Of a stretch of DNA of 56,380 nucleotides, positions 29,449 through 55,466 are shown piece after piece (positions within the stretch are counted from its first letter, which is position 1; each line of letters opens with the position of its first letter). The notes beneath the pieces are model-generated. The model saw nothing but the letters and a program-made list of their open reading frames with translations. It was not told the origin of the DNA and searched no databases. Location: the NCBI GenBank assembly GCA_035765895.1, contig DASTWL010000051.1:1-56380 (forward strand), in the 5' to 3' direction. Source of the DNA: Verrucomicrobiia bacterium. Lineage in GTDB: Bacteria; Verrucomicrobiota; Verrucomicrobiia; Limisphaerales; DSYF01. The translations under genes and the position numbers were made by a program.

Positions 29449-29526
29449 CGGGGCGTAGCGTAGCCTGGCTAGCGCGCTTGTTTCGGGTACAAGAGGTCGT
29501 GAGTTCGAATCTCACCGCCCCGACCA
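29449..29526 (+). tRNA. tRNA-Pro (anticodon CGG)
   Basis: A 78-nt cloverleaf. Acceptor CGGGGCG pairs with CGCCCCG, followed by A and an encoded CCA. The anticodon stem CTTGT/ACAAG encloses the loop TTCGGGT, giving CGG at the anticodon position. The T arm is GTGAG-TTCGAAT-CTCAC. C1-G72 is usual for bacterial tRNA-Pro. The integrase gene begins 64 bp downstream, so the 3' end is the likely attachment site of the island. Confidence 0.95.
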
Positions 29527-33368: not shown

Positions 33369-33466
33369 ACGCCAACAATTTATCACAGCGGCAACGCTGG
33401 GAGCGGCTGTGTGCGGTGTGGGCGATAAGAGCCGGGCCGGAGGCTGCGGTCCGATGGAGTGGTCAA

Positions 33467-36219: not shown

Positions 36220-38203
36220 AATCCGAAAAGTGATAGGCGTTTTTGATCAACTTGTGGCAAACAAGAATGGAATCGCCTTTCCATCGGTTCGCGTGTGGAT
36301 CAGGGGGGCTAACGATTACGAGACGCGCGGTTTGGAGCAATTGTTTCCAGAGCGTGGGACAGTATACTTGCACGTTTCAGCTTGTGAAAATCAACACCCC
36401 CTGCGGAATCAAGTGGGCCTTTTCAACTGCGTTGAATCGCCAGGGCAAAGTGCCGCATGGAAGGTAAATACCACATCGAAGCATCTTGCGAAAGTAGTGG
36501 ATTATCCCGCGTGGGAGAGTAAACCGGGGCACCTGGCTTTTTGGGAGTGGTTGGCGGGATACAAAGAATCGCTACCTTGCAACATTTTGTTGAGTCAAGG
36601 CATTGCCTATGTGCGCCGAGGAAAGCGAGAACTTATAGGGCCGTTTGCCGCCACAAGCGAAGGCAGGCTCTCCCCGCGAGAACAAACATTCATTTTTGAC
36701 GGAGTGGACATCGTTCAGACTGAGATTTCTGGCAGGAAGTATGGATTCATAGACACGGAAAGTCTGCCCAAAGGCAAACCGATATTGCTAGACCCCAAAG
36801 AAGCAATTCATCGACGGTTGAAGATACTAAGCCGGACGGGCCATTTGGAATGGCTCTCCCGAACCAAGGTGCAGGAATTGTCGAATGCTCTGGCTGGCAT
36901 CACGGTTGCCGATGGTTCCGAATGGGTAATGGAACATTTGCCCGGAGCGTTAGAGAATATCAGTCAGGTGGGGCGGCTTGATGAGAATACTGTCGAGTCA
37001 ATACTTCAGATCAAAACTGTGGAGGAAGCGCTGGCACTCATGTGGAAACGCCAACACGCAGAAACCACGAGCAAAGCAGAGAAGGAAATTGATGAACTGA
37101 AGAAAGCAGCGGGAAACATTCAAAAGGCAATCGAGGATAAGAACGGAGAACTGGCCCAGTTGCAGAGCGAAAGGAATTCGCTTGAAAACGAATTGCGGAG
37201 GCTCAACCAAAACATCGAGGCGGCACGGACTGATGCGCGAAAAGTGTTTGATGAAGAATTGAAGCGGCTCGCATCGTCGCCCGAGAGTCTTGCCCTATTT
37301 GCGGCCTGGAGCAGTTCGGGCAATAAAGGGCTTGGGACGAACTCGGGCCTCAAAATCAAAGTTCAGCAATTGGATGCGAATCGCCAAAAGGCAGCCAATC
37401 TCTCGGATGCCTTCAGCAACAACCTTAGAAGGATTGGGCTTTCGCCCGCGAGTGCGAGTGAGGTGGCGATTGTTTGTGCCGCTGCGATGCTAAGTGGACA
37501 GCCAGTTGCATTTCGGTCTCTTCATTCCGACATGCTTGCGGATGCAGTCGTTAGTGCGCTCGGACAACCACAAGCGTTGTGGGTGGATTTGCCCGCTGGA
37601 CTGCTCGACCCTGTTGACTGGGAATCGTTGATTCCAGACGACCAGAAAACGCTCCCCCTAATCCTTCAAGGAGTCAACCGATCTGATGTTTCAATGGTTT
37701 TGGGATCGAAACGAATGGCTGTTTCGAGACAGGCGTTGGGGTGTCAGAAGCCCGAAGGCATGTTGCTTGTTACCCTAGAGCAAACCAGAGAGATGCAAGT
37801 CCAAGAGGATATTGAATTCGGCGCGATTGTAGATGATCGAATGTTGAAATTTGGTGCCGCAAAGGTGGCGGCTGCAATTCACAGTTTCAGTGCCCAATCG
37901 GCCAATCTCGCTGACATTGAATTAATTTCAGACGAAGAGTTGATCGAGGTGGTCGGTGATGAGTTTGCCCAACTCGCGTTGTTTAGAACCTCAGCCAAGA
38001 GAATCTTATATCGGCGGGCGATTAGCGCGCTAAAACTCGCCAAAATCAGCAACCAAGAAATTTGCCGATTGCTTTACAAATACTGGATTCTTCCCCGGCT
38101 GGCGGCAAATGATATGAGCAGCGTCTTAGAGTCCTACAGGGAGAAATGGAAACAGGATGCGAACTTAAGCGATCTGGCCAAAGCAACGACGGGAAATGAG
38201 TAA
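36212..38203 (+). CDS. Large coiled-coil protein of candidate defence operon 1
   Basis: 663 residues from ATG 36212. Residues ~1-270 are an unrecognised mixed domain. A strong coiled coil lies at ~283-353 (AEKEIDELKKAAGNIQKAIE and onward). The C-terminal half (VAIVCAAAMLSGQPVAFRSL... ALWVDLPAGLLD... LPLILQGVNRSDVSMVLG) has the rhythm of an AAA-type ATPase core in which the P-loop Gly-Lys-Thr has been lost. That is a by-eye impression, not a proven homology. ATGAGTGA and ATGAGTAA overlaps link it to both neighbours. Probably a structural or adaptor subunit of the helicase complex. Confidence 0.55.
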   Translation: MSEIRKVIGVFDQLVANKNGIAFPSVRVWIRGANDYETRGLEQLFPERGTVYLHVSACENQHPLRNQVGLFNCVESPGQSAAWKVNTTSKHLAKVVDYPAWESKPGHLAFWEWLAGYKESLPCNILLSQGIAYVRRGKRELIGPFAATSEGRLSPREQTFIFDGVDIVQTEISGRKYGFIDTESLPKGKPILLDPKEAIHRRLKILSRTGHLEWLSRTKVQELSNALAGITVADGSEWVMEHLPGALENISQVGRLDENTVESILQIKTVEEALALMWKRQHAETTSKAEKEIDELKKAAGNIQKAIEDKNGELAQLQSERNSLENELRRLNQNIEAARTDARKVFDEELKRLASSPESLALFAAWSSSGNKGLGTNSGLKIKVQQLDANRQKAANLSDAFSNNLRRIGLSPASASEVAIVCAAAMLSGQPVAFRSLHSDMLADAVVSALGQPQALWVDLPAGLLDPVDWESLIPDDQKTLPLILQGVNRSDVSMVLGSKRMAVSRQALGCQKPEGMLLVTLEQTREMQVQEDIEFGAIVDDRMLKFGAAKVAAAIHSFSAQSANLADIELISDEELIEVVGDEFAQLALFRTSAKRILYRRAISALKLAKISNQEICRLLYKYWILPRLAANDMSSVLESYREKWKQDANLSDLAKATTGNE

Positions 38204-39218
38204 ACTCGCGCCAACGCCGAAATCGGGAAGTGTTCAAATCACGAATACCTACGAAACCTGGCGTGCCTCACAAACATGGTTGGCTGAGATGGTGCGTGCG
38301 GTGGCAAGCAGACTATTTGCCCAAGCAAACGGTGAGTTCATAGAAACGGGGGACAAATCGTCATTTGCAGTGCATTGGAGTGCGCTCACAGCGCAGGTTG
38401 CAAAGTTGTTCGGTGCATTGTTCGATGAAAGTGATCCAGAATTGTCGATTTCATGGGTGATCGATTTGCTAGTGCACCTGGAAGATCTCGGAGACATCGG
38501 TCGCGGCTACTGCTTGCCTCGTGAATCACGGGTCGTGCGGATAACCGAGGACTGGGGACGGATTGCAGGCGGCTTGCCACTGGAATTGAGCGAACACTGC
38601 GAAGATGGAATTGACATTGTGCCATGCGAATCTATCGGGCGAGTAGTGAAATTGGCAAAGCACTTTAGTCAGCACGATGACGGCGCTGAACACTCTGACG
38701 TATTCCGTTGGGTAGGGCGAAGTGCTGAAAGTCTGTTTGCAGAGTTGTGCGATGAGTTGCCGGAACGCCCTGCTTCTCCTCCCCCCGAAGGAACAGTCTA
38801 TTACAACTCCCAACTTCAGCGATTACGCACTCGTGGTGAGCGTTGGCAAAGCAAATTTCCGGGCGGCGAGTTTGTGGTGGCTCGCACTGGGGCTTTCCCG
38901 GCGCATTACAGTGTTCACATTCGCAGACAGGAAAACCGAGCGCCTGCCTGGTATGAGGTAACACGAAACGAAGCCAGACGATGGGTGCTTCTCGCCGAGA
39001 AAATTGCGGGAACGATGAACCGAATCCCGATGAGAGCCGAGGAGCACGGTATTGTCGTGTTTTTGCCAGATATGCTTCCAAAGGCGTGGACGACCGCACT
39101 TTTCACGTGCGCGTCGTCCGTCGTTCCAGCCGAAAAGGGGTGGACGCTGAAAATTCAAGATGGAGGCAAAGGTCTGGCAGAGGCCGTTCTCAGGAGCGCG
39201 AACATTCAAATGATATGA
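38196..39218 (+). CDS. Unknown protein of candidate defence operon 1
   Basis: 340 residues, start ATG 38196 inside ATGAGTAA (8-base overlap with the upstream stop). The end overlaps the helicase start as ATGA. An N-terminal helical region is followed by SISWVIDLLVHLEDLGDIGR and GYCLPRESRVVRI, which could be a winged-helix-like unit. Later segments such as GEFVVARTGAFPAHYSVHIR are beta-rich. No enzyme motif is visible. The tight coupling to the helicase gene suggests a stoichiometric partner. Confidence 0.6.
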   Translation: MSKLAPTPKSGSVQITNTYETWRASQTWLAEMVRAVASRLFAQANGEFIETGDKSSFAVHWSALTAQVAKLFGALFDESDPELSISWVIDLLVHLEDLGDIGRGYCLPRESRVVRITEDWGRIAGGLPLELSEHCEDGIDIVPCESIGRVVKLAKHFSQHDDGAEHSDVFRWVGRSAESLFAELCDELPERPASPPPEGTVYYNSQLQRLRTRGERWQSKFPGGEFVVARTGAFPAHYSVHIRRQENRAPAWYEVTRNEARRWVLLAEKIAGTMNRIPMRAEEHGIVVFLPDMLPKAWTTALFTCASSVVPAEKGWTLKIQDGGKGLAEAVLRSANIQMI

Positions 39219-42200: not shown

Positions 42201-44650
42201 TGCTCGGACATTGTCCGCGATGTGGGGGACATGAGATCACCGAGTTCGATCCAAACGTAGATCCCTACGTGCAAAGCCGCAAAGGCTTCTGGCGGAAACC
42301 CGTCAAGGCAGCTCATGACGGAAAGACAACTCCGCGGCTTCTCTCGGCGGAGGAACACACGGCACAATTATCACACAAAGAGGCAACAAGCGGTTGGGTG
42401 AAGACCGAGGAATATGAACTGCGATTCCAGGACGTTCTCGCTGATCCGGTCAACAAGCCGGCAGTTGATGTCCTGAGTTGCACAACCACGATGGAGGTCG
42501 GTATCGACATCGGATCGTTGGTTGCGGTGGGGCTGAGAAACGTGCCGCCGCAGCGGGAGAATTATCAACAACGCGCAGGACGTGCGGGTCGTCGAGGCTC
42601 GGCAGTCTCCACCGTCGTGACTTACTGCCAGGGGGGGGCGCACGACAATCATTATTATGCGCACGTGGATGAAATCTCATCTGGCGCACCGCGAAAGCTC
42701 ACGGTGAAAGTGAATAATGCCAAGATTGCCCGGCGGCATGTCAGGTCGTTCCTGCTGCAGGAGTATTTTGGCGAACGCGAGGCGGCTTCTTCGCCCGATA
42801 TATTGAGCAGTTTGGGAACTTTGCAGGGGTTTTTTGAGGGCACTGGCGAAGGCACGCTGGCGGATTTTTGCGAGTGGATGAAGCAGAAAGTGGCGGCCGG
42901 AATCGGCAAGAAAGTGCAAGCGTGGTTGGGAAACAATTTGGAGGATGTCAAAGATGTCGCGGAGTGGGCGACCACAGAGGCGAAGGATTTTGCCGCTAAG
43001 TTGAGCGGACTCAAACCGAAAGCTCAGGAGATGATCGCTCGTGAGGCGGGAATGAATGACGCAGAGCGGACGAAGCTGCTGGAATTTCTGCTCTCTGAAG
43101 CGATTCTGCCAACCTATGCCTTTCCGACAGACCTATCGACGTTTCGCGTTGAAGAGTGGGATACGGATGTGTCGAATCTGGTTGCCCGGTATGCCCCGCA
43201 ACAGGCGATTTCACGGGCGCTTTCTGAATATGCGCCGGGGCGGCTGATCACCATTGATAAACGGACCTACAAGTCGGCTGCGGTGACGGCCAATGTCTCC
43301 CTGACCGAACCGAAGCGGGCACGTCCCTTGTTCACAAATCCGCATCGCAAGCCGTATGTGTTCTGCGACCAAAAACACTGCTGTTACGTGGAGGATGTTG
43401 GCGACCAAAACGGGGCGACGCGAGAGAACGCAGATTGTCCGCTCTGCGGAATTGGCAAACTGCGGGTCGTCGAAATGATTACGCCAGAAGTGTTCCTGCC
43501 AGATGACGGTCGCGAGGTTAGCGCGCTCGATGACGACTCTGATTATTCCTACGCAACCCCAGCCCAGTTCCCAGTGCCGTTACATCAAAGCGGGGACAAA
43601 CAGCAATTAGTTCGAAAATTAAGTGACCGGTTGGAAGTGTTCCGGCGAGCTGACGCGCAACTCGTTGTCGTCAACAAGGGCGATCCGGATGATCAATCTG
43701 GATTCCATGTTTGCGATGCCTGTGGACGGGCCACGCTCGCAAAGGTGGGAGCCCCACCAACGTCGCATCGGACGCCTTACAAGGTGTTGGCGAGCAATCG
43801 AAGCCATGCCAGGGCCGTGGCCAGATGTGAAGGGGAAATCAAAGGGCCAGTATTTCTCGGCAATCGATTTGTTACCGATCTTGTAATTCTGCGAATCCAA
43901 ATCACCAAACCGCTGTGTCAATCGCCGCGTGCGATGGCGGCTGAGTATTGTGCCTTACAGGATGCCTTGCAGACGCTGGCGGACGCGCTCCCGCTGGCAG
44001 CAGGGAGAATGTTTGATGTGGATTTCACCGAGTTCAGCGCCGGATACCGGCTGATCAACCAGAGTGGCGAGGGTGCTTCCATCGCGGCTGAAATCTACAT
44101 GTTTGATACTTTGTCCGGCGGCGCGGGCTATTCCGAGCGGGTGGGCGATGCAATGGAGGAGTTGCTTAAAGATTATGTCCGCAAGGTGTTGTCATGTGAC
44201 GATGAACACGGTGAGGGATGCGACCGTTCCTGTTATCGCTGTCTGCGGCACTACTATAACCAGTTTTATCACTCGCGTCTCGACCGGCATCTTGCTCTGG
44301 ACCTGCTCGATTTGATTCTGGACGGCAAGTCCCCTGCAGACGGTCCGGTGGCAGAACAAGAGCAACAATTGCAGGGATTGCAGGTCATGCTCGACCTGGA
44401 TGGCATCACGACACAGATGGGGGGATCGGTTGATGGCATCAAGGTGCCACTCCTTGCCAAGCACAAAGGAAAGAGTGTCGCGGTGTGCGTCACGCATGCC
44501 TTGGTGGCAGAACAATTCCGGTCAGGGCTAGTTGATGATCTGGATGGCAGTTCGGTGCCGCTGCGTCCGCTGAACGCCTACCAACTCACGCGGAATCTTC
44601 CGTCGTGCCACCTTGCAATCAGAAAATGCCTGGGCCTCCGACCTTCATAA
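39215..44650 (+). pseudogene. COG1205/DruE-like DUF1998 helicase with one in-frame TAA
   Basis: Read through, the gene encodes 1811 codons, the size I recall for DruE-type helicases. Motifs: GHQAHALKAF (Q-like), Walker A ATGTGSGKTE (residues 114-123), DEAH in IVLDEAHMYRGATG (322-325), TTAS (358-361); later TTMEVGIDIG and QRAGRAGRRGS, several zinc-ribbon Cys pairs (CANPKC/CECG, CQSC/CPRC, CPLC, CDAC) and a C-terminal DUF1998 module (SGGAGYSERV, then GCDRSCYRCLRHYYNQ). A TAA at 41438-41440 falls in helicase motif IV: the frame reads GRKVLIF-stop-DGRQKAARLA, where relatives have FSD. There is no frameshift; a single C-to-A change from TCA would explain it. Alternatives: two separate proteins (restart near TTG 41513), a sequencing error, or readthrough. 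Confidence 0.85.
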
Positions 44651-45732
44651 TTGGCGAGTTTACGATTCGACCGAAGCCGCCTGAGACCTGGTCGTTTTCG
44701 GCACTCCGGGGATTTGAGGAATGCCCGATGCGCTGGGCACTATCTCGGACAGTTTTTCCATGCTTCGGTGGACCTATTCCACAAAAGCCCAACAGGGGCA
44801 GTCTGGAAGGCGCACTTCTCCACGAATTGATTGAACAGTATGAGCACTACACAAGGAATCCTAGCGACGGGAATTTTCGTCCTCGCCGAACCTTATTGGA
44901 ATTGGTCGCAGCGTGGGAGAAAAAGAACGAATCCAACCCGAGAATTGACAGCAAGGCGCTGGCAGGACAGGTGCGTCTCGAAGAAATCCTGAGAGCATTC
45001 GGTGAAGCGTCTAGCCACGTTAAAGTATCGCAGCACCAATTGAACACCGACACACGCCCAGTCGGAAACGGCCCGGGAGTTTTCAACGGCGCGGAAAGCT
45101 GGCTGAAAGATCCAAAGTCAAAGTTGTGTGGCCGCGCAGATTTAATTACGACGGGTGAGATTGTTGATTTCAAGAGTGGAGAAAAGCATGAACACCACGC
45201 CGAACAGGTTGTGTTCTACGCTGCGCTCTATTTGGCAACAGCCGGGAAGTCGCCGACTGCGCTACGCCTGATTTACACCGAGAAAAACGAGGTGCTGGAA
45301 GTGCCGGTGCCGATGTTGAATCAACTTGAAAACGTGTTGGGCGAGTTGCGGCTTCGTGCATCAAGAGCTGACGGGCAAGTGGACACCGGTGAACTGCCGG
45401 CGAAGCCAGAACCAACAAAATGCGCGTATTGCCATGTCCGCGGAGTCTGCAGCAAGTATTGGGAATCGCTCGCCAACAGCACAGCAAAAGAAGCGACGGT
45501 GGTTGACTATGTTCCGACCACCGCAGCCGTCGTGGAATCAGCCGCACTCGGGATTTACATCCGGGACGATTTGTTTGGGGTTCAATCTCTCCTGCATCTA
45601 CCGCAGGAAGTAGCTGAAAAGGTGGCTGATGGCTCTCGCCGTATCCGGTGTCTTGCACTCAGGGCCAATACGGGACCAGCCGGTATCCGGTTTTCTTTTA
45701 CACAAAACAGCGAGGTGTATTTCGCGCCTTAG
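44626..45732 (+). CDS. Cas4/AddB-like PD-(D/E)XK nuclease with probable Fe-S cluster
   Basis: 368 residues. WSFSALRGFEECPMRWALSR gives the first cluster Cys and the RecB-type N-terminal motif. LEGALLHELIEQ supplies the conserved His. KLCGRADLI, then EIVDFKSGEKH carry the active-site Asp and D-x-K; HAEQVVFYAALYLA is the QxxxY motif. CAYCHVRGVCSKYW ends the domain with three more Cys, so a 4Fe-4S cluster like that of AddB/Cas4 is likely. The ATG at 44626 overlaps the helicase end by 25 bases. The partnership of a RecB-family nuclease with a DUF1998 helicase suggests coupled unwinding and degradation of DNA. Confidence 0.85.
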   Translation: MPGPPTFIIGEFTIRPKPPETWSFSALRGFEECPMRWALSRTVFPCFGGPIPQKPNRGSLEGALLHELIEQYEHYTRNPSDGNFRPRRTLLELVAAWEKKNESNPRIDSKALAGQVRLEEILRAFGEASSHVKVSQHQLNTDTRPVGNGPGVFNGAESWLKDPKSKLCGRADLITTGEIVDFKSGEKHEHHAEQVVFYAALYLATAGKSPTALRLIYTEKNEVLEVPVPMLNQLENVLGELRLRASRADGQVDTGELPAKPEPTKCAYCHVRGVCSKYWESLANSTAKEATVVDYVPTTAAVVESAALGIYIRDDLFGVQSLLHLPQEVAEKVADGSRRIRCLALRANTGPAGIRFSFTQNSEVYFAP

Positions 45733-46020: not shown

Positions 46021-46665
46021 ATGAACGAATCGAACGCTGACTCATCCTCGGGCTTCGGCCCATTTCCCCAATCCACCAACGGCCACGTAAATCGTGCCGA
46101 CACGCCCCGCGATGAAATCGAAGTCGCCCGGCGGTTTGAATCGCAAATCAATCGCCTCGCCTGGCATTACGCTCGCGGCAACCGCTGCCTGCAACAAGAT
46201 CTGGCCCAGGAAGGAATGATTGGGCTGGTCAATGCGCACCGCAACTTTAAGCGTGAGGGCGGCGCGTCTTTCGCCACCTACGCCGACCGACACATTCGCG
46301 GTCGAATGAAAAACTTCGTGCGTTCGGAGTGCCGCCATAATTGCTGTATGTCTTGGGCGGAGTATCACGGCACAGAATCGGAAGCCGATGACGCGGGCGA
46401 GGAATCGCCGAGACTCCACGCCCACGAAGCGATTGAAGCGGTCGGCCAATTTCTGTTCACCGTTGAAGTGCAACTCATGCGCCAGTTCTTGAGCAGCGCG
46501 ACAGAGGTGTTCACCGCCAAGCAGCAGTTCATCTTCCGACTGCGCTTCTTGCATGGATTGACGGTCGGCGAGATTGCACAGGAAACAAATGTGTCGCCGG
46601 CGCGTGTTTCGCAAGTGCTGGCAGAGGCGTTGAGAAAGTTGCAAGCGAGTTTCATCCGTAATTGA
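46021..46665 (+). CDS. RNA polymerase sigma factor encoded in the island
   Basis: 214 residues. Region 2 at ~55-105 shows RLAWHYARG, then LQQDLAQEGMIGLVNAHRNF and FATYADRHIRGRMKNFVRSE, the pattern of group 3 sigma-70 factors (FliA/SigB/SigF type). Region 4 at ~165-212 shows AKQQFIFRLRFLHGLTVGEI and VSPARVSQVLAEALRKL with a clear helix-turn-helix. There is no anti-sigma gene beside it. It stands at the head of operon 2, 105 bp before the first GHKL gene, after a 288-bp spacer following operon 1 in which I see no gene or strong terminator. It may direct transcription of the downstream operon (inference). Confidence 0.88.
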   Translation: MNESNADSSSGFGPFPQSTNGHVNRADTPRDEIEVARRFESQINRLAWHYARGNRCLQQDLAQEGMIGLVNAHRNFKREGGASFATYADRHIRGRMKNFVRSECRHNCCMSWAEYHGTESEADDAGEESPRLHAHEAIEAVGQFLFTVEVQLMRQFLSSATEVFTAKQQFIFRLRFLHGLTVGEIAQETNVSPARVSQVLAEALRKLQASFIRN

Positions 46666-46685
46666 TTCGGCATTAAGTCAAATTG

Positions 46686-46755
46686 GTGCCGGCGTTCGGG
46701 CGTCGCTGACACCGGTGAAAACAAGCCCAAAAACCAGAGGCCCGAATATGGGCAC
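46686..46755 (+). promoter_or_regulatory. Possible structured leader before the first GHKL gene
   Basis: GTGCC at 46686-46690 and TTCGGG at 46695-46700 pair with CCCGAA at 46741-46746 and GGCAC at 46751-46755, separated by a 4x4 internal loop and a 40-nt apical region. The structure lies just before the ATG at 46771. There is no T-run, so it is not a terminator. It may be a translational or transcriptional control element. Confidence 0.35.
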
Positions 46756-46770
46756 AAGAAGTTGAGAGTT

Positions 46771-48594
46771 ATGAAAATCAAGAAACCAGCAGTTCAGAGC
46801 ACGAAAGAAGCGGCCTCCATGCCGACGTTGGATTTGGAGGCGCAGCACAAGTATGTCCAGTCTTTGAAAAAGACCGGCGAACGGAGTTTCCAACTTATCG
46901 CGACATCCGCATTTGTGGAATCCATGCGTGACAGCGGCTACAAATCCACCGCCACGGCAGTTGACGAGTTTGTGGACAACGCCGATCAGGCAGGGGCGAC
47001 GCGAGTCGACCTCCTGTATCAGGTCGTCAACGGCGACGGAAACCAGCACGACATCGGCGCGATCGCTGTCGTTGACGACGGCCACGGCATGGAGCCGGAC
47101 ATGATCCGTGCCGCCGTGTTGTGGGGTGGCACGCATCGGCACAACGACCGCAGCGGCCTCGGTCGGTTCGGTTTTGGCCTACCCTCCGCTGCCGTCAGTA
47201 TCACGCGCCGTTTCGAGGTGTATTCCAAAGTGAAAGGCGGCGAATGGTATCGCGTGTGCGTTGACCTGAACGACGTTTGCGCCGGTAAGCACACGAACAA
47301 CGAAGGGCTTGTGATTGCTCCCGATTCCGAGAAAGCAACATTGCCTGCCTGGGTTCAGAAGAGCCTTGGCAAGCGGACACTCGACCAAGGCACGGTGGTT
47401 CTGCTCGTCGCCCCCGACCGTTTGACCACGGGCTTTCGCAAGCCAAACGCGTTTCACAGAAACATGATGGAGCATTTTGGTCTGATTTACCGCGGAATCT
47501 TAAATCGGTGCGCCTTGTTTGTGGGTGATCAGCGGGTCGATGCCGTTGACCCCTTGTTCCTCGATCCGAGCGCACGCTTTTACGACGTAGGCAACGATGT
47601 GATTGCCGAGGGGCGCGAGCCGCTCCAGTTCGCAATGAAGAACGGGCGCACGGGAGCAGAGGGTATTGTAAGGTTGCGCTTTTCATACATGCCTCCGACG
47701 TTCCAGCGCAACGCTGATGGGACGGAAAACAAGGAACGCCTTTCCATAATGAAGGAGAACAACGCTTACTTCATTGTCACCCGAGCTGGGCGGCAGATTG
47801 ATCTGGTCACGCGGACGGCCTACCCGAAAGACGACCTCAACACCGGCAACCTGAACATTTTCGACCGTAACTGGGCGATTGAACTCGATTTCGACCCGAT
47901 CCTTGACGAGGAGTTCGGCATCACGGTGAACAAACAGCAGGTGAACTTGAGCGAACGCACGTGGCAGGCACTCATGGACAACGGCGTGCCAGGCATTGTG
48001 AAGAATGATCTGCGCGCGAAATTCGCGAAGGCGCGTGACGACAAGAAGGCCAAAGCCGATGAGAACGCACCCAAGCAGTCGGAAAAGGTGATGGCGGAGG
48101 CAGAGAAGTTCGCCAAGAAGCGGCCTCAACTGCCTGACAGCAAACTGGAACAGGCCCGCAAGAAGATTGAGGCAGAGGCCGAGAAGGAGGCGAAGGAAAA
48201 AGACAAGCCGAAGGCGGAAGTTGAGAAGAAGTTGCTGGAAGAGGCCCACGCAAACAAATACGTCGTGCTCTTTGAGGCATTGGAGGGCGCGCCGTTCTAC
48301 CGCCCGGACATGTTTGGCCCGCAGACACAGGTTCGAATCAACACCCGGCATCGGTTTTACAGCGAGGTTTACGATGGGCTCAAGACCATGCCTCGCGTCC
48401 GAGCCGCCGTTGAACTGCTGCTGTTCACTCTGGCTGCGGAAGAATTGACCGCCGATGGCAACCGCGAGCTGTTTTACAAGCAGGAGCGCAAGCAGTGGTC
48501 TGACCGGCTGGAATTGCTCCTGCAATTGTTGGATCGGAAATCATCGTTGGAGGAAGAGCAGTCGGCAGAAGCCGAATCAAAAGAAGTTGCGTGA
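46771..48594 (+). CDS. GHKL (Hsp90/MutL/MORC-like) ATPase 1
   Basis: 607 residues. The Bergerat ATP-binding fold lies at the N-terminus: N-box AVDEFVDNADQAGATRV (~62-78), GI box VVDDGHGM (~99-106), lid GLGRFGFGLPSAAVS (~129-143). The transducer region follows. Residues ~413-500 are a highly charged Lys/Glu/Ala helix, probably a coiled coil, and a helical C-terminus ends EEEQSAEAESKEVA. GHKL ATPases dimerise on ATP binding and often act on DNA, as in MutL, MORC and topoisomerases. The ATG at 46771 was chosen over a TTG at 46762. It shares the lead-in S/T-x-x-F[VI]E-[SA]-x-RDSGYKS with the next gene, so the two are paralogues. Confidence 0.88.
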   Translation: MKIKKPAVQSTKEAASMPTLDLEAQHKYVQSLKKTGERSFQLIATSAFVESMRDSGYKSTATAVDEFVDNADQAGATRVDLLYQVVNGDGNQHDIGAIAVVDDGHGMEPDMIRAAVLWGGTHRHNDRSGLGRFGFGLPSAAVSITRRFEVYSKVKGGEWYRVCVDLNDVCAGKHTNNEGLVIAPDSEKATLPAWVQKSLGKRTLDQGTVVLLVAPDRLTTGFRKPNAFHRNMMEHFGLIYRGILNRCALFVGDQRVDAVDPLFLDPSARFYDVGNDVIAEGREPLQFAMKNGRTGAEGIVRLRFSYMPPTFQRNADGTENKERLSIMKENNAYFIVTRAGRQIDLVTRTAYPKDDLNTGNLNIFDRNWAIELDFDPILDEEFGITVNKQQVNLSERTWQALMDNGVPGIVKNDLRAKFAKARDDKKAKADENAPKQSEKVMAEAEKFAKKRPQLPDSKLEQARKKIEAEAEKEAKEKDKPKAEVEKKLLEEAHANKYVVLFEALEGAPFYRPDMFGPQTQVRINTRHRFYSEVYDGLKTMPRVRAAVELLLFTLAAEELTADGNRELFYKQERKQWSDRLELLLQLLDRKSSLEEEQSAEAESKEVA

Positions 48595-48675
48595 TCCAAT
48601 CGGGTGCGGCGGGCGATTGGCTGGCGGCTTTAACCCTGGCCAATTCGCCGTTGCGACCCAGTGCAACCCAATATT

Positions 48676-50208
48676 ATGGCAAGGCACGCATCTTCTCTGG
48701 TGGTGGCCTCGCATTTCATCGAGGCGACGCGAGACTCCGGCTACAAGAGCCTCGGCTCTGCGCTGGCGGAGTTGATTGACAATTCATTCGAGGCCAAAGC
48801 GACGCGGGTGGCGGTCGTGATTGGGCGAGTCGAGGGAGCGAACCCACCGGAATCGCATCTGCGGGTGTCGGACAACGGTTCGGGCATGGACGCCAACACT
48901 TGCAGCAACGCGATGCGATTCGGGTGGAGTTCGCGGTTCAACCAGCGGAACAGCCACGGGCGTTACGGCATGGGATTGCCCAACGCATCTCTTAGCCACG
49001 CCCGGCGCATCGAAATCCTTACAAGCTGTGATGGTAAGTCGGCGCGGGCAACGTATCTCGACGCCGATGAGTTTAGTTCGGGTGGGCGTGAAAGCGTTCC
49101 CGCCGCGAACGAGATCGCAGTCGCGGAGTTCCGCAAGGTGCATCCGTTCAAGCATGGAACAACCGTGGTCTGGCGGAAGTGTGACCGGCTGGAAAACCGA
49201 TACCTCGGCCCGCTCGTGAAGCGATTGGGATTAGAACTTGGGCGGTTGTTCAGGTTTCAACTGTGGGCGGGCAAGCATATCACGTTGAACGGCGATCCGC
49301 TCAGACCGCTCGACCCGCTGTTTGAACGGCAAGGCTGTGGGCTGACCGGGGCGAACGCATTCGGGCCGGAGTTGACCTATGAAGTGGCGTCCACCGATGG
49401 CAACGGCAAGGCAGCGTCCTCGGTGGTGAAAGTTCGGTTCACCGAACTGCCCGTGGAAAAGTGGCATGTGCTGTCGAACCGGGAAAAGAACGTCACCGGG
49501 ATCGCAAAGGGCGCGGGGGTGTCCATTGTCCGTGCCGGACGAGAAATTGACCGGGGCTGGTTTTTTATGGGGCAGAAGCGCCGTGAGAATTACGACGACT
49601 GGTGGCGTTGCGAGGTCTGTTTCGAACCAGATGTGGATGAGTTGTTTGGCGTGACCCACACCAAGCAAGAAATCCATCCCACGGAAAAACTGAACGCCAT
49701 TCTCACGCCGGACATGGAGCGGACGGCGCGGGAACTCAACGGTCGGGCGCGAAAAGCATTCGTGATGGCGAAATCAAACGGGCACATCGCGCGGGATTCC
49801 GAACGCCTGGCCGAACGGTTTGACAACTTGATCGAGCCACCGACTCAAGCGACACGAGTTGTCCAAAAGGCGGTGGTGTTGCGGCGCGGCGGTCGTGGGC
49901 GAGTTGGTGGATTGGAGTATCGGTTTCATTGGGAAAAACTCGACCAACTCGCGTTCTACCTGCCGTCGCTGGATGGCGCGTGTCTCAAGGTCGTTCTGAA
50001 TGAGCAACACCCGTTCGTCAGACAAGCATGTGCCGCGACAACGACGCAAGGCGACGATCAGGCTGGTGAAGCGCGGCGGAATTTGGAACTGGCAATCCTC
50101 GCCGCAGCTCGGGCGGAAGTATCGCTCGCGAAGAACAAGCAAGCGCGCGGCTGGTCAAAAACATTTCGAGAATCATGGAGCAACATTCTAGCAACATTTC
50201 TGAGTTAA
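48676..50208 (+). CDS. GHKL (Hsp90/MutL/MORC-like) ATPase 2
   Basis: 510 residues. FIEATRDSGYKSLGSALAEL, then IDNSFEAKATRV form the N-box; VSDNGSGMD the GI box; HGRYGMGLPNASLSHAR the lid. It lacks the long charged coiled coil of its neighbour and continues into a transducer-like region with REIDRGWFFMG and EVCFEPDVDELFGVTHTKQE, also similar in order to ATPase 1 (IVTRAGRQIDLV, LDFDPILDEEFGITVNKQ). The ATG at 48676 lies 81 bp after the first gene; GTG 48661 is possible. Its end overlaps the next gene by 34 bases. A heterodimer with ATPase 1 is likely by analogy with other paired GHKL proteins. Confidence 0.88.
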   Translation: MARHASSLVVASHFIEATRDSGYKSLGSALAELIDNSFEAKATRVAVVIGRVEGANPPESHLRVSDNGSGMDANTCSNAMRFGWSSRFNQRNSHGRYGMGLPNASLSHARRIEILTSCDGKSARATYLDADEFSSGGRESVPAANEIAVAEFRKVHPFKHGTTVVWRKCDRLENRYLGPLVKRLGLELGRLFRFQLWAGKHITLNGDPLRPLDPLFERQGCGLTGANAFGPELTYEVASTDGNGKAASSVVKVRFTELPVEKWHVLSNREKNVTGIAKGAGVSIVRAGREIDRGWFFMGQKRRENYDDWWRCEVCFEPDVDELFGVTHTKQEIHPTEKLNAILTPDMERTARELNGRARKAFVMAKSNGHIARDSERLAERFDNLIEPPTQATRVVQKAVVLRRGGRGRVGGLEYRFHWEKLDQLAFYLPSLDGACLKVVLNEQHPFVRQACAATTTQGDDQAGEARRNLELAILAAARAEVSLAKNKQARGWSKTFRESWSNILATFLS

Positions 50209-52229
50209 AGACGCGGTTGGTCGCCCTCGAACCAAAGCTTGGCAACAAGCGCGAAACGTTTCGCAAATTCTGCCGCCAACTGGCGCGGCGAGTTGAGAAA
50301 GCGGGCAACATCGCCACGCCGGAGGTCATCGCACAGGCACGCGAGGACGTGGCCGCGCTTGTGAGCGGCCCGGCGTCAAGCGCGAGCCTCACGCTGCAAT
50401 TCTGCGCGAGCGTAGTCGTGGACATTGTCGCGCAAGGGTGGACGCTCAAACCACGGCGGCAAAAGATCACCCTCGAAGAACCGAAGACGGAAGGCGCGAC
50501 GCCGATGGACATCAAGCAGCGCATCCGTGCGGGACATCTTTTCGAGCGTGACGCACAACTGCGAGAGCCAGCGGTTGTGGAGTTCGTCAAAAACATGGAG
50601 CAACGCCGGCTCGGCCCGAACGGGTGGGTTTCAATCTTCTCGCTCATGCGCGACGGTCGTGAGCTTGCAAGCAAACTCAAGACGGCGGCAGCCGAAGCCG
50701 ACGAAACGAAGCGCGTCGAGTTATTGGCCGAAACAGTTTCGCCGTATGTGCAAGCCGTCGAGACTGACGCCGTGTGTTCGTTGACTGGTTTGCGGCTGAC
50801 GGACATCTGGCGTTACTTCCGACATACCTGGGTAAGCACCTACAAGTCCCTGCCGGGCCGTTCCATGCTGGTGCTGATTCGGGATGCAGCCGCGCCGAAT
50901 CATCCAGTCATCGGTATTGCCGCGCTCGGCAGTTCGATGGCGCAGCAAACGGAGCGTGACCAGTGGATCGGATGGGACTCGGATGTATTTATCAAGAAAT
51001 TGCACGAGCATCCGACGGCCAAGTGGTGTCGTTGGGTGCATGAATCAGTCGAACGCCTGCTCGACGCGATTTACAAAGCGGATTTGATTGCCGACGGCAA
51101 TCTGCAAAAGCGCCACCTGACGAATCCGACTCCAGAGGTCATTGAAAAACTTACAGCGGAATCCGTCAAAGCGGCGAAGATGCACCAGTTGGATGCCGCT
51201 GCGGCCGAGCACAAGCGCAACTCGACCGGGGAAGCCGGTGGCACGGTGGACTGGAAGAAGCAGGCCCTTACATGGCTGTTCCGGTCAAAGCGGGCAAAAA
51301 CGCTGGCGCTTTTGCTGGGTGTCCGCCGCAACCTGCGGGAAGCGGGACTGACGGATGAATCGGCAGCGGCGCTGAAAACGACGCTCGAATCCCCGCACGG
51401 CAAGCACGCTATTCGCCAACTTGTGCGGCTCGTCAAGGCGGAGCATGTCGGCGTGGATATGATGGACATCATCATCTGCGGCGCGGTTGCGCCCTACAAC
51501 ACACTGCTGGGCGGCAAACTTGTTTGCATGATGCTGACCAGCCCGGAAGTGGTGAGGTTCTACCGCACCCGTTATGGCGAACAGGCCAGCATCATCGCTT
51601 CATCCATGAAGGGCGACACGGTGATCCGCTCACCGAATCTCGTGTTGCTCGCCACGACCAGTCTCTACGGGGTGGGGTCGAGCCAATACAACCGCGTGCG
51701 TGTGCCGGTGGCCGAAGCCGGTGGCAAGGGCGACGCGGTGATTGAATACGAGGAGTTGGGAATGAGCCGGGGCTACGGTTCTTACCATTTCAGCAAGGCG
51801 TCCATTGATTACTTGGAGACCCTGATGCCGCGTGGCGGAGTGGGGCGCAAAGTGAACAGCATTTTTGGAGAAGGTGTGAACCCGCTCATGCGAAAGTTGC
51901 GCGACGGTCTCGCGCATGTCGGCTTGCCCGCCGAGGATTTGCTGATGCACGGCAATCCTCGTGTGGTTTACGGCATCCCGATTGCCGAGAACTTTCGGGA
52001 AGTCCTGCTCGGTGTTGACTCCAAGCCGAAATACTTCCTCGCGCTCGCCAATGCAAACGAGCACACCGCCAAGTTGGGAGCGTTCTGGCGAAAGCGATGG
52101 CTTGCGGGGCGGATTGCGCGTCCAGGCATTCTCGATGAAGTCGAGAAACACACGCTATCGTATCCAGTCACGCATGGAGCGCGTGTGCGGCTGCCTTCCG
52201 ATGAGGATGAGGCCAACCTGTTTCAATAG
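50175..52229 (+). CDS. DruA-like (DUF4338-type) protein
   Basis: 684 residues. After an N-terminal helical region (~1-100), the segments IGIAALGSSMAQQTERDQWI-GW (~248-266), AVAPYNTLLGGKLVCMML (~436-453), FYRTRYGEQASIIASSMKG and LATTSLYGVGSSQYNRVRVP follow the order of landmarks I recall for DUF4338/DruA proteins (RDxWIGW, a conserved LxSxxL helix, RYG, a Tyr-rich GTxY block). The match is by eye and this would be a divergent, longer member. DruA is a component of Druantia type I anti-phage systems; its biochemical activity is not established to my knowledge. ATG 50175 overlaps the GHKL-2 gene. Confidence 0.6.
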   Translation: MEQHSSNISELKTRLVALEPKLGNKRETFRKFCRQLARRVEKAGNIATPEVIAQAREDVAALVSGPASSASLTLQFCASVVVDIVAQGWTLKPRRQKITLEEPKTEGATPMDIKQRIRAGHLFERDAQLREPAVVEFVKNMEQRRLGPNGWVSIFSLMRDGRELASKLKTAAAEADETKRVELLAETVSPYVQAVETDAVCSLTGLRLTDIWRYFRHTWVSTYKSLPGRSMLVLIRDAAAPNHPVIGIAALGSSMAQQTERDQWIGWDSDVFIKKLHEHPTAKWCRWVHESVERLLDAIYKADLIADGNLQKRHLTNPTPEVIEKLTAESVKAAKMHQLDAAAAEHKRNSTGEAGGTVDWKKQALTWLFRSKRAKTLALLLGVRRNLREAGLTDESAAALKTTLESPHGKHAIRQLVRLVKAEHVGVDMMDIIICGAVAPYNTLLGGKLVCMMLTSPEVVRFYRTRYGEQASIIASSMKGDTVIRSPNLVLLATTSLYGVGSSQYNRVRVPVAEAGGKGDAVIEYEELGMSRGYGSYHFSKASIDYLETLMPRGGVGRKVNSIFGEGVNPLMRKLRDGLAHVGLPAEDLLMHGNPRVVYGIPIAENFREVLLGVDSKPKYFLALANANEHTAKLGAFWRKRWLAGRIARPGILDEVEKHTLSYPVTHGARVRLPSDEDEANLFQ

Positions 52230-52258
52230 AACGAACCAAAGAAAGTGAGGCAACCAAT

Positions 52259-53443
52259 ATGGCAAATCTAAATCTGTTCACACATCCGGGAACATTTCGC
52301 CGGATGAAGCCGGACTATTTGATTACCTGGCTTACGCCAGCACGCGAGTATCTGGCCGGGCGCGGGTTCGTGCTGCCATCGTCTGCAGCGGACGGACAGA
52401 TTGATTACGAACGGCTGGCGGCAATCTTCATGGAGCCGGATGCGGATATGCCGCGCGAATTGATGCACTCGGCCTCGCTGATCCATGAAATGGCCACCGA
52501 GGCCGGGATGTATGACCTGCTCGACGGATTGCGTCATGTGGGCATTGAAATGGAAGTAGGCGACGACCCCGACCCCGTGGACGTTGCGGTGCAGGTCTGG
52601 AATCAGCATCCGAAGGTGCTGGAGGAAATGCACCAGATACACCAGTTGGACCGCCCGCGTGGTTTTGTCCACTTCGTCACGGACCGCCGTCCGATCCCGG
52701 CCTTCGATGAGCCGACGCCTGATCAGACGAAGGACTTGGAAGCGGAACTCGCGGACTGGTTTTTCAAGGCGAAACGCGGTCGGCACGCCCGCGTGTGGAT
52801 GTATCGGCGTCCGGGTGAGTATTGGTTTTTGGTGCGGCACGGGCTGACGAGCAAGCGCCAGGAAGTCGTTTCGGCGACCGGGTCAGAGACTTTGCTGTTT
52901 CGGCCCGGTGAATACGATGTGTTGGTTTACAATCGCAAGCGCGGCGAGTTGCGGATTCACGGATGCAATCCACGCGAAGTGGAAATGCTGCGAACGGTAT
53001 TCGGCAAGCATGTGTTCCATGACAAGGAGTTCTTCCCTGGCGGTGCTAGGTTCACGCTCGCGCCGCTGGTGGAGAGCGGCCGGGCCTGCCTCGCTTGCGC
53101 GGACGTGCCAGGAATTGAAGATGTCACGCTCGTGGAGGTTCAGTCCTACTCCGGTGGAAAAGACTGGCTGCGGACGCTGTATCAAGCGCCGGACGTGTTC
53201 ACGATGGTGGAACACGAACGTGTGGTTTTGCCCGATCCAGACTTCCTCGTGCGCGCAAGTTTTCTGGTGCGGTTTAGCGATTCCAAGAAACGCCGGACGA
53301 TCAAGATTTTGGGCACGAACAAACTAAGCGTGGTGCGCGACGGCGACACGGCACTCATGGAAAAGTGGCTGGACGCACGCGGATTCATCATCAAGCGGAC
53401 AGAGAATGAGCAAGAACCAGAAGGGGTTTTGGCGGGCGCTTGA
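52259..53443 (+). CDS. Unknown protein of candidate defence operon 2
   Basis: 394 residues, start ATG 52259 preceded by GTGAGG. The N-terminus (LFTHPGTFRRMKPDYLITWL, then PAREYLAGRGFVLP) and the middle (KAKRGRHARVWMYRRPGEYW, LVRHGLTSKRQEVV) look like a mixed alpha/beta, possibly nucleic-acid-binding protein. No known catalytic motif is visible. The end overlaps the next gene by 38 bases. It lies between the DruA-like gene and the HTH gene, and is probably a dedicated subunit. Confidence 0.6.
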   Translation: MANLNLFTHPGTFRRMKPDYLITWLTPAREYLAGRGFVLPSSAADGQIDYERLAAIFMEPDADMPRELMHSASLIHEMATEAGMYDLLDGLRHVGIEMEVGDDPDPVDVAVQVWNQHPKVLEEMHQIHQLDRPRGFVHFVTDRRPIPAFDEPTPDQTKDLEAELADWFFKAKRGRHARVWMYRRPGEYWFLVRHGLTSKRQEVVSATGSETLLFRPGEYDVLVYNRKRGELRIHGCNPREVEMLRTVFGKHVFHDKEFFPGGARFTLAPLVESGRACLACADVPGIEDVTLVEVQSYSGGKDWLRTLYQAPDVFTMVEHERVVLPDPDFLVRASFLVRFSDSKKRRTIKILGTNKLSVVRDGDTALMEKWLDARGFIIKRTENEQEPEGVLAGA

Positions 53444-54623
53444 AAAGCTCGCCACTGGCGCGGTCATGGCGGAGTGGAATCGTGAACTCGGCCATGATAC
53501 GGCACGCGCACGCCCCTATCTGGCGCTGGCGAACGGACTGGCGGAAACTTATCCGTGCCAGAATGCCTTTGGCTGCGGGTTTCCGCATCGCGTCGAGCAA
53601 CATAAGCCGGGGCAATGGGTGGCGTTTTGCGAAACAGAGGACTCATGTCCGCCGTTCCAGGTCGCGAATACAGAGTTGTTCGTCTTTGCGGCAGACACAT
53701 CGAAGCTATGCAGTGGCATAGCACGGGCACTTGGATTGGATGCGAGCGTTAGCCGACAAGTTGGCGGCGTCCGCGCCCTGCCGGTCGGAACTTATGGAGC
53801 GGCACGCGCCAACGTGTATTTGATGTTCCCGACGGATGCTTCCCGGATGGCGCGTGAAGTTGAGCGGCTATTCGGAATCCAGCCTGATCCGTTCCTATTA
53901 CTTACGCCGACAGGAATGCACTGTTCGGCGGAAGTGGAATCGGCGTTGCGGCGGCAGTCGTGCTTGCACATTCCAATGTCGGCGGCTTTGCTGCTTGGTG
54001 ACAAAGGTTCACTCGCGCCAAGTTCTGCCGCTGACTCGCTGCTAAAAGAATTTCAGCGGCGACAGGCGGATGGCCGGTTGCTGGTCAAGACGGTGGAGCG
54101 GATCGACCGGAATGTTGATGCGGTAGCGCGCAATCAATATGAACTTCGCAAGGAGAACGACGAACTGCGACAGTTGCATACCGAGGGATATTTCAAGTTT
54201 GCATTGAAGGTGGACGCCGCCGACTTCCAAGCTTTTGCGGTCATCATTGCATTAGGAAATCGGAAAGCGGCAGCAGAGCATTTGCAGATCCCGCACCGAA
54301 GCTTCTATGATCGCGTGGACAAGTGGCCGCAGCGCGGGAGGGAGTATCAGTTGATGTGGCGTTTCATCGAATGGCGCAAGCGCAGTGGGCGGCACATAAA
54401 AGTCCGGCTGGATGAGTCTTTACAGTCGGGTGAATCCGGCGGGCAAGCCGAGAACCCGGAAACCCTCCGTGAAACGCTGGAGTCTGTGAAAGCATCCGAG
54501 TCCACCAATTATCCTGACTTACTGGCAGACATCTTTGGGGCGCTGCAGCGGCAGAATGCCGCGAACTGGTCGAGCGTGAAAACCGAACTTCTCAAACTCA
54601 TCCGCGAAGAACTTCCGCAATAA
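53406..54623 (+). CDS. Cys-rich protein with coiled coil and Fis-like HTH
   Basis: 405 residues. C51/C57 (PCQNAFGCGFPH) and C75/C81 (FCETEDSCPP) could form a metal site near the N-terminus. A coiled coil (~205-255, RIDRNVDAVARNQYELRKEN) precedes a Fis/NtrC-type helix-turn-helix at ~273-311 (FAVIIALGNRKAAAEHLQIP, then HRSFYDRVDKWP). The tail is acidic and helical. It could be the DNA-recognition or regulatory subunit of operon 2. It is the last gene before the terminator at 54666. Confidence 0.65.
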   Translation: MSKNQKGFWRALEKLATGAVMAEWNRELGHDTARARPYLALANGLAETYPCQNAFGCGFPHRVEQHKPGQWVAFCETEDSCPPFQVANTELFVFAADTSKLCSGIARALGLDASVSRQVGGVRALPVGTYGAARANVYLMFPTDASRMAREVERLFGIQPDPFLLLTPTGMHCSAEVESALRRQSCLHIPMSAALLLGDKGSLAPSSAADSLLKEFQRRQADGRLLVKTVERIDRNVDAVARNQYELRKENDELRQLHTEGYFKFALKVDAADFQAFAVIIALGNRKAAAEHLQIPHRSFYDRVDKWPQRGREYQLMWRFIEWRKRSGRHIKVRLDESLQSGESGGQAENPETLRETLESVKASESTNYPDLLADIFGALQRQNAANWSSVKTELLKLIREELPQ

Positions 54624-54665
54624 TCTCCGCAACTCGCCACAAGAGTTGCAATTCACTCATCCACA

Positions 54666-54695
54666 GGGGTTAGCGTAATCGCTAACCCCATTTTT
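54666..54695 (+). terminator. Rho-independent terminator closing operon 2
   Basis: A perfect 10-bp stem, GGGGTTAGCG (54666-54675) with CGCTAACCCC (54680-54689), a TAAT loop, then ATTTTT. It lies 42 bases after the stop at 54623. It is the clearest terminator in the window and sets the end of the sigma/GHKL/DruA-like transcription unit. Confidence 0.92.
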
Positions 54696-54967: not shown

Positions 54968-54985
54968 CCCTTGGAGGAATCACAC

Positions 54986-55276
54986 ATGATGACCGAATCA
55001 AGCAATGTCTGCACCCCGCCAGCGCCGCTGGCAACTCAACCGCGTCGTCCCCGTCCGCTCGGCGATGGCTACGACGAGATGCTCACCAAGAAGGAACTGG
55101 CCGCCAAGTTAAAGGTAACGTTGCGCACAATCGAGAACTGGCAGCGCGCCGGCCATCTGCCGTTCATCAAAATTTCCTCCGTGGTGCTTTTTGATTGGGC
55201 CGAAGTCCGCGAAAGCCTTCACACGAATTTCAAAGTCTGCCGGCGCGGTGCGATTCGTCCGCGGCTGGGGACTTAA
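54986..55276 (+). CDS. Excisionase/AlpA-like HTH_17 protein
   Basis: 96 residues from ATG 54986, with a strong GGAGG at 54973-54977 (a second ATG is adjacent at 54989). LTKKELAAKLKVTLRTIENW, then QRAGHLPFIKISSVVLFDWA is a MerR-like winged helix of the excisionase/AlpA type, followed by a basic tail. It may be the recombination directionality factor for the island integrase or a regulator of the phage-like module. Confidence 0.8.
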   Translation: MMTESSNVCTPPAPLATQPRRPRPLGDGYDEMLTKKELAAKLKVTLRTIENWQRAGHLPFIKISSVVLFDWAEVRESLHTNFKVCRRGAIRPRLGT

Positions 55277-55310: not shown

Positions 55311-55466
55311 ATGACACTAATCGAAACGTTCCTGAACCTGATGGTCATCGGCTGGCTGCTGTTCCTCGGCTACGTCCTCGGGAAAGCGCTGGAGGAATAC
55401 ATCGAGGATCGGGCCAAGAAAGCCGCCAGACGTGAACTGCAAAACAAGGAGGGCGGCAGCAAGTGA
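55311..55466 (+). CDS. Small membrane protein of the phage-like module
   Basis: 51 residues: one transmembrane helix (FLNLMVIGWLLFLGYVLGKA) followed by a charged amphipathic tail (EEYIEDRAKKAARRELQNKE). The ATG at 55311 was chosen; its stop overlaps the GTG start of the next gene (GTGA). Function unknown. Confidence 0.6.
   Translation: MTLIETFLNLMVIGWLLFLGYVLGKALEEYIEDRAKKAARRELQNKEGGSK

What the first reader, a model, noticed from the sequence alone, without database searches (positions are those of the whole stretch)
46021..54695. Candidate undescribed system: sigma factor, paired GHKL ATPases, DruA-like protein and two unknowns
Six same-strand genes with short spacers or overlaps run from an island-encoded sigma factor to a strong terminator. 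Two paralogous Bergerat-fold ATPases precede a DruA-like protein, an unknown protein and a Cys-rich HTH protein. I know no described anti-phage system with this set. DruA is known from Druantia type I, but two MORC/MutL-like ATPases and a dedicated sigma factor are not part of what I recall. The setting (tRNA island, nuclease and helicase neighbours) supports a defence role.
Basis: partly seen in the sequence, partly recalled or inferred. Interest (0 to 1): 0.88.

Follow-up and report, generated by a model that had tools for sequence, protein, structure and literature searches.

The report
Druantia-like defence locus with MORC ATPases
The stretch is the second half of a bacterial anti-phage gene cluster related to Druantia type I. 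Its DruA-like protein travels with one or two MORC-like ATPases, relatives of enzymes that silence DNA in animals and plants, and this partnership recurs in many unrelated bacteria but is in none of the defence catalogues or papers checked.

Summary
A sigma-70 gene, two GHKL ATPases, a long DruA and two further genes lie on one strand at 46021-54623, followed by a terminator.

They are not a stand-alone undescribed system. Directly upstream (34705-45732) lie DruB/C/D-like genes, a full DruE1 helicase interrupted by one in-frame stop (41438), and a Cas4/DruK-like nuclease. Together this is a Druantia type I-related locus.

The new part is the MORC-DruA coupling. In 76 of 81 long-DruA genes with enough upstream sequence, a MORC-like GHKL gene lies directly 5', usually overlapping, across eight phyla; at 29 generic DUF4338 genes it was never found. 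The two ATPases are old paralogues: all ten upstream copies fall in one clade. A sigma-70-like gene accompanies all ten paired loci and none of the single-ATPase loci.

The ATPase folds like MORC2/3/4 and SMCHD1. DruA looks like a GNAT acyltransferase. The last two genes form a separate cassette also found beside restriction systems. No catalogue or paper held describes this set.

Best reading: a new variant of Druantia type I, with a MORC clamp and DruA as recognition module and DruE plus nuclease as effector. No function was tested.

The parts
29449..29526 (+). tRNA-Pro (cgg), probable integration site of the island
   Evidence: ARAGORN
29591..31102 (+). tyrosine-integrase-like protein
   Evidence: Pfam Phage_integrase 1.2e-5, just under its cut-off
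34705..36219 (+). DruB-like protein (CoiA_N-type N-terminal domain)
   Evidence: PADLOC DruB1 1.1e-9 and Pfam CoiA_N 2.3e-6, N-terminal part only
36173..38203 (+). DruC-like coiled-coil protein
   Evidence: PADLOC DruC1 7.3e-16 over residues 293-534, largely coiled coil
38196..39218 (+). DruD in position, weak in sequence
   Evidence: PADLOC DruD1 0.008; BLASTP 3e-5 to the gene in the DruD position of L048
39215..44650 (+). druE (YprA/DUF1998 helicase), one reading frame interrupted by a TAA at 41438-41440
   Evidence: PADLOC DruE1 5e-261 and 3e-273 for the two halves, profile 2-734 and 761-1772 of 1776; same frame, 314 of 381 near-invariant columns kept, motifs GTGSGKT and DEAH present
44605..45732 (+). 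PD-(D/E)XK nuclease, Cas4/DruK-like
   Evidence: Pfam PDDEXK_1 2.9e-20; PADLOC DruK 7.5e-17
46021..46665 (+). sigma-70 family factor
   Evidence: Pfam r2 2e-11 and r4 2e-10; TIGR02937 6e-24
46774..48594 (+). GHKL-1, MORC-like ATPase of the 'distal' clade (a start at 46762 is also possible)
   Evidence: HATPase_c_3 1.6e-16; clade with the upstream copies of nine other paired loci
48661..50208 (+). GHKL-2, MORC-like ATPase adjacent to DruA
   Evidence: HATPase_c_3 4.6e-24; predicted fold matches MORC2/3/4 and SMCHD1
50175..52229 (+). long DruA (DUF4338), predicted GNAT-like fold
   Evidence: PADLOC DruA1 3.4e-183; model pLDDT 89.5; nearly all top fold rows are GNAT
52259..53443 (+). unknown protein 1 of a separate portable two-gene cassette
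   Evidence: homologues in 25 of 289 phylum genomes, usually followed by the next gene, without DruA or GHKL
53406..54623 (+). unknown protein 2 of that cassette (weak HTH)
   Evidence: overlaps its partner here and in 11 of 12 other pairs
54666..54689 (+). intrinsic-terminator-like stem with T-rich tail

Best explanation
This is a Druantia type I-related anti-phage locus in two operons. Operon 1 (34705-45732) encodes DruB/C/D-like proteins, the DruE helicase and a PD-(D/E)XK nuclease. Operon 2 (46021-54623) encodes a dedicated sigma factor, two MORC-like GHKL ATPases and a long DruA, with an unrelated two-gene cassette at its end. Shown: the gene content, the conserved MORC-DruA coupling, the age of the two MORC clades and the link between sigma and the second MORC. 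Inferred: the MORC proteins dimerise on ATP and close round incoming or replicating DNA; DruA, a GNAT-like protein made next to the proximal MORC, forms a complex with it and either acylates a partner or target or uses CoA binding as a switch; the engaged complex brings in DruE, which unwinds the DNA for the nuclease; the sigma factor raises expression of its own operon on infection. In this genome the interrupted druE means the pathway is probably broken at the effector step, unless the stop is an assembly error.
For: DruA and DruE match PADLOC Druantia type I models over almost their whole length. In 76 of 81 long-DruA ORFs with at least 1.2 kb upstream, a GHKL gene lies directly 5' on the same strand, mostly with 40- or 4-bp overlaps; 0 of 29 generic DUF4338 loci have one (Fisher p about 1e-21). 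DruE lies in the held DNA of 56 of 85. The GHKL tree places the ten distal copies in one clade and the proximal copies of eight of the ten pairs, with nearly all single copies, in another; the two clades span several phyla. Sigma-like genes were found at all ten paired loci (sigma-70 annotation of L024) and in none of 107 flanking ORFs of single-GHKL loci. The GHKL model matches MORC/SMCHD1 at Z 22-24. DruA's top fold rows are nearly all GNATs, in line with PMC10853773, which calls DUF4338 a GNAT. PMC13192584 describes DruE of Druantia III as a helicase-nuclease effector (abstract); PMC12458937 predicts an inactivated nuclease domain in type I DruE, which would give the separate nuclease a role. 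MORC2 compacts DNA (title and abstract of PMC12216690).
Against: No activity was tested. druE is interrupted here. DruB, DruC and DruD matches are weak or partial. Seven of the ten paired-MORC loci show no DruE in the DNA held, so operon 2 may act alone. Most homologous loci have a single MORC and no sigma, so those two parts are optional. The DruA fold match is moderate (best Z 8.4) and no CoA binding was tested. The loci were found by similarity to four DruA proteins that all had MORC neighbours, which favours that clade.
Confidence: 0.55

Rival explanations
1. The MORC-DruA cassette (with sigma and a second MORC in some lineages) is an independent defence module that often sits beside Druantia or other helicase systems but works without DruE.
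For: Roseivivax plasmids carry GHKL-GHKL-DruA-sigma beside catabolic genes with no DruE; L028, L031, L032, L036, L037 and L098 also lack DruE within the DNA held; in L045, L046, L050, L052 and L053 two genes of about 1000 aa follow DruA, the second a SNF2-type helicase in L046, the one scanned.
Against: 56 of 85 long-DruA loci do hold DruE, in fixed positions (3' of DruA or convergent with it); flanks of 10 kb can miss a more distant DruE.
Confidence: 0.25
2. The GHKL proteins are regulators of the sigma factor (anti-sigma kinases of the SpoIIAB/RsbW kind), so operon 2 is a signalling cascade.
For: GHKL and sigma genes are neighbours, and sigma occurs only where a second GHKL occurs.
Against: The proteins are 515-610 aa HATPase_c_3 proteins with an S5-type transducer region; sequence and fold matches are MORC, SMCHD1, topoisomerase VI-B, Hsp90 and MutL, not small anti-sigma kinases; 66 homologues in the tree come from single-GHKL loci.
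Confidence: 0.08
3. The locus is an MZA-type system (sigma MzaA, MutL-like MzaB) placed next to a Druantia locus by chance.
For: Best named matches of the sigma and the GHKL proteins outside general families are MzaA and MzaB.
Against: Scores are 37 bits against a cut-off of 800 and 54-75 against 850; no MzaC, MzaD or MzaE match in any protein scanned.
Confidence: 0.04

Closest known systems
Druantia type I (DruA-DruB-DruC-DruD-DruE)
   Same: Full-length DruA1 and DruE1 matches; DruB/C/D-like genes before DruE; island setting
   Different: DruA is last and in a second operon, long (684 aa) and overlapping a MORC-like ATPase gene; extra sigma, second MORC and nuclease; DruB-D weakly matched; druE interrupted
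Prokaryotic MORC/paraMORC ATPases in restriction systems (Iyer et al. 2008, PMC2292703)
   Same: GHKL plus S5-type ATPase next to SFII helicases and PD-(D/E)XK nucleases
   Different: That paper's text as searched mentions no sigma factor, acetyltransferase or YprA helicase; its helicases are Rad25-like, SNF2-like or a distinct SFII type
MZA (MzaABCDE)
   Same: Sigma factor beside a MutL-like ATPase
   Different: Far below the curated cut-offs for MzaA and MzaB; MzaC, MzaD and MzaE absent
DndF with a fused DUF4338/GNAT domain (PMC10853773)
   Same: Same DruA/GNAT domain used as a module by another DNA-targeting system
   Different: There DruA is fused to a P-loop ATPase; here its partner is a MORC-like ATPase

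Membership tests
Druantia type I | DruA (DUF4338) present | tested here: met
   PADLOC DruA1 3.4e-183, 57-668 of 675
Druantia type I | DruE (YprA/DUF1998 helicase) present | tested here: met
   PADLOC DruE1 over the full profile, but interrupted by a stop at 41438
Druantia type I | DruB, DruC and DruD present | tested here: inconclusive
   Right place and order, weak or partial matches: 1e-9, 7e-16 (coiled coil), 0.008; no profile match to the DruD family of the other loci
Druantia type I | DruA-DruE in one operon with DruA first (canonical order as I recall it) | tested here: not met
   DruA lies in a second operon 3' of DruE; gene order alone is not decisive for membership
Druantia type I | Protects against phage | not testable with these tools
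   Needs plaque assays
MORC-like GHKL ATPase | Bergerat-fold ATP-binding motifs intact | tested here: met
   Invariant D40-N41, D71-G73-G75, G100-G105 and near-invariant E37 in 45 sequences
MORC-like GHKL ATPase | GHKL plus S5-type transducer with catalytic Lys; MORC-like fold | tested here: met
   Invariant K335-Q336; Z 22-24 to MORC2/3/4 and SMCHD1
MORC-like GHKL ATPase | MORC-specific sequence motif of Iyer et al. (MORC versus paraMORC) | not tested
   The motif was not checked against these sequences
GNAT acyltransferase (DruA) | GNAT fold | tested here: inconclusive
   Nearly all of the top 50 rows are GNAT-type but best Z is 8.4 and Foldseek alone gives nothing significant; PMC10853773 assigns GNAT independently
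GNAT acyltransferase (DruA) | Binds acyl-CoA and transfers the acyl group | not testable with these tools
   Conserved GGKL loop only
MZA | MzaA and MzaB above curated cut-offs | tested here: not met
   36.8 of 800 bits; 54.3 and 74.9 of 850 bits
MZA | MzaC, MzaD and MzaE present | tested here: not met
   No such match among the window proteins scanned, E up to 0.1 or 1

The most novel reading that the evidence does not exclude
A MORC-type DNA clamp plus a GNAT-like DruA is a portable recognition module of bacterial immunity that plugs into different helicase effectors (DruE, SNF2) and, in one branch, has its own sigma factor and a second MORC. This would make bacterial MORCs, the likely ancestors of eukaryotic silencing MORCs, directly testable as immune factors.
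Probability: 0.35. Interest if true: 0.78.

Novelty: new variant of a known kind. Interest (0 to 1): 0.6.

Why it matters
Druantia type I has no known mechanism in the papers I could search, and its DruA has no assigned role. A near-constant MORC partner gives DruA a likely binding partner and suggests an ATP-gated DNA-clamp step that can be tested with single point mutations. Bacterial MORCs were predicted in 2008 to serve restriction systems; this gives a large, well-defined family in which to test that, and a link to MORC proteins that silence invading DNA in eukaryotes.

Tried and rejected
Recent tandem duplication of the two ATPases: rejected, the copies fall in two old clades, except in the Roseobacter plasmids where both fall in the distal clade. 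Idea that the 1211-1264-aa DruA ORFs of L103/L104/L106 are GHKL-DruA fusions: rejected, the C-terminal half shows no GHKL match and carries a P-loop. Unknown 5 and HTH as Druantia parts: rejected. Unknown 5 and HTH in plasmids or viral contigs: no relatives. Sigma factor at single-MORC loci: not found. Right-hand attachment repeat: none convincing; the window is the whole contig and ends inside the island. Promoter scan: one site on the other strand, below chance expectation. Literature: no paper found that joins Druantia or DUF4338 with GHKL or MORC; the library lacks most subscription papers, and the original 2018 report was not among the hits.
Full report
WHAT IS THERE. The six genes of the finding are real and in the stated order, with gaps of 108, 66, -34, 29 and -38 bp and a terminator-like stem at 54666-54689. 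Family scans give a sigma-70 factor, two HATPase_c_3 (GHKL) proteins, and a DruA that matches PADLOC's DruA1 model over its whole length at 3.4e-183; the last two proteins match nothing useful. The next genes upstream, on the same strand and mostly overlapping, are a PD-(D/E)XK nuclease (DruK/Cas4-like), the DruE1 helicase and DruB/C/D-like genes from 34705. A 288-bp gap separates the two halves, so I read them as two operons. DruE starts at 39215, where its ATG overlaps the druD stop (from the sequence). Its two listed ORFs are in one frame and are separated by one TAA at 41438-41440 inside the second RecA domain; the rest is well kept. Intact copies exist in related genomes.

IS THE SET RECURRENT? 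One scan of 84,980 genomes with a DruA alignment gave 80 loci. Of 85 long DruA ORFs there and in plasmid and viral records, 81 had room upstream and 76 of these have a GHKL gene directly 5' on the same strand; 40-bp and 4-bp overlaps dominate. The tree display names eight phyla: Actinomycetota, Acidobacteriota, Pseudomonadota, Bacteroidota, Verrucomicrobiota, Gemmatimonadota, Myxococcota and Thermodesulfobacteriota. As a control, 29 loci with generic DUF4338 genes from the window's phylum (up to 1.5 kb on each side of the domain match) have no GHKL neighbour. Fisher's test gives about 1e-21; relatedness makes the true figure weaker, but the pattern holds across phyla. DruE lies in the held DNA of 56 of the 85, either 3' of DruA or convergent with it, and DruD matches PADLOC at full length in loci such as L038 and L063. 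A viral contig (L108) also carries GHKL-DruA-DruE.

THE PAIRED FORM. Ten loci, counting two near-identical pairs (L031/L032 and L023/L024), carry two GHKL genes: the window, L023, L024, L028, L031, L032, L033, L036, L037 and L098. All ten upstream copies fall in one clade (SH-aLRT 99), while the proximal copies of eight loci fall with the single copies. So the pair is an old combination of two subfamilies. Each paired locus also has a sigma-70-like gene: upstream of GHKL-1, between the two GHKL genes, or on the other strand after DruA. Pfam, NCBIfam or RefSeq annotation supports the assignment for the window, L024, L028, L031 (and its near-copy L032), L037 and L098; L036 is weak, and L023 and L033 rest on my own profile. 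Of 107 small ORFs flanking single-GHKL loci none matched sigma models, while the positive controls did.

WHAT THE PROTEINS ARE. A profile of the GHKL family finds MORC2 first among solved structures (4e-15), then MORC4, MORC3 and MutL. The predicted GHKL-2 structure (pLDDT 86.8) matches SMCHD1 and MORC3, MORC4 and MORC2 at Z 22-24 and by Foldseek at 4e-14. ATP-binding residues and the KQ motif are invariant in 45 sequences of both clades, so both copies are probably active. DruA was predicted well (pLDDT 89.5). Foldseek finds nothing significant, but the re-alignment ranks GNAT acyltransferases in nearly all top rows, best Z 8.4. That is moderate evidence, and a published analysis calls DUF4338 a GNAT domain on independent grounds (PMC10853773). 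The conserved GGKL loop sits where GNATs bind CoA; this is inference.

THE LAST TWO GENES. Homologues of 52259-53443 and 53406-54623 occur in 25 and 18 of 289 genomes of the phylum. In twelve loci read out they lie side by side, overlapping in all but one, without DruA or GHKL. Their neighbours include a type III restriction enzyme (L168), a type I methyltransferase (L175) and a type IIG enzyme (L177). They look like a portable accessory or regulatory pair of defence operons and not a Druantia part.

HOW IT MOST LIKELY WORKS. Shown: gene content, coupling, clades, fold matches. Inferred: MORC proteins close round DNA on ATP binding (MORC2 compacts DNA, PMC12216690; GHKL modules were proposed to loop DNA in restriction systems, PMC2292703); DruA works in a complex with the proximal MORC; DruE, an effector helicase in Druantia III (PMC13192584), is brought to the marked DNA; the separate nuclease cuts, since type I DruE is predicted to carry an inactive nuclease domain (PMC12458937); the sigma factor raises operon-2 expression. 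In this genome the interrupted druE makes a working system doubtful.

NOVELTY. PADLOC has no Druantia model for the GHKL genes; their best named match is MzaB, far below the curated cut-off. Text searches of 5.39 million papers found no link between Druantia or DUF4338 and GHKL or MORC. The original 2018 Druantia paper was not among the papers found, so earlier notice cannot be excluded. I file it as a new variant of Druantia type I and not as a new kind of system. The variable partners of long DruA (MORC; DndF-like fusion in L103, L104 and L106; FtsK/HerA-type genes on archaeal plasmids L186, L188 and L189) suggest that DruA is a module shared by several DNA-targeting systems.

LIMITS. The loci were chosen by similarity to four DruA proteins with MORC neighbours; 71 further relatives were not kept by the tool. 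Gene calls outside annotated records are mechanical. The window's phylum is inferred (nearest DruA is from a Verrucomicrobia MAG, 65% identical).

Noticed in passing
window 41438-41440: In-frame TAA interrupts druE inside the second RecA domain; the rest of the gene is well conserved, so this is a recent break or an assembly error.
   Followed up: yes
window 52259-54623; L168-L180: Two-gene cassette with no known family, beside or divergent from type I, type III and type IIG restriction genes and Druantia in Verrucomicrobiota; a possible shared regulator or accessory of defence operons.
   Followed up: partly
L103:9674-13465, L104, L106: Long DruA fused to a P-loop ATPase; in L103 and L106 followed by a gene of 495-737 aa and one of about 1570 aa (HerA-type in L103): a DndFGH-like system with a DruA domain.
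   Followed up: partly
L186, L188, L189 (haloarchaeal plasmids): Long DruA followed by two genes of about 500 aa and an FtsK-annotated gene, divergent from a DruE-like helicase, with no GHKL gene.
   Followed up: partly
L045, L046, L050, L052, L053: GHKL-DruA followed by two genes of about 1000 aa in place of DruE; in L046 the second is a SNF2-type helicase and a NERD-UvrD protein lies nearby.
   Followed up: partly
G048: Several near-identical copies of a 467-aa generic DUF4338 gene in one genome, which suggests a transposable-element association of short DUF4338 genes.
   Followed up: no
window 31983-33386 (-): Ankyrin-repeat protein with a C-terminal HTH_17 domain inside the island.
   Followed up: no
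window 54971-55276 and 55463-55828: After the terminator: an excisionase-like HTH_17 protein (also PADLOC mad1, 1e-7) and a weak Hjc-like resolvase, probably mobile-element genes.
   Followed up: no
L066:12151-13904 (-): In L066 (Streptomyces) the nuclease position next to druE holds a PADLOC candidate family PDC-M02B gene plus a DUF4365 gene.
   Followed up: no
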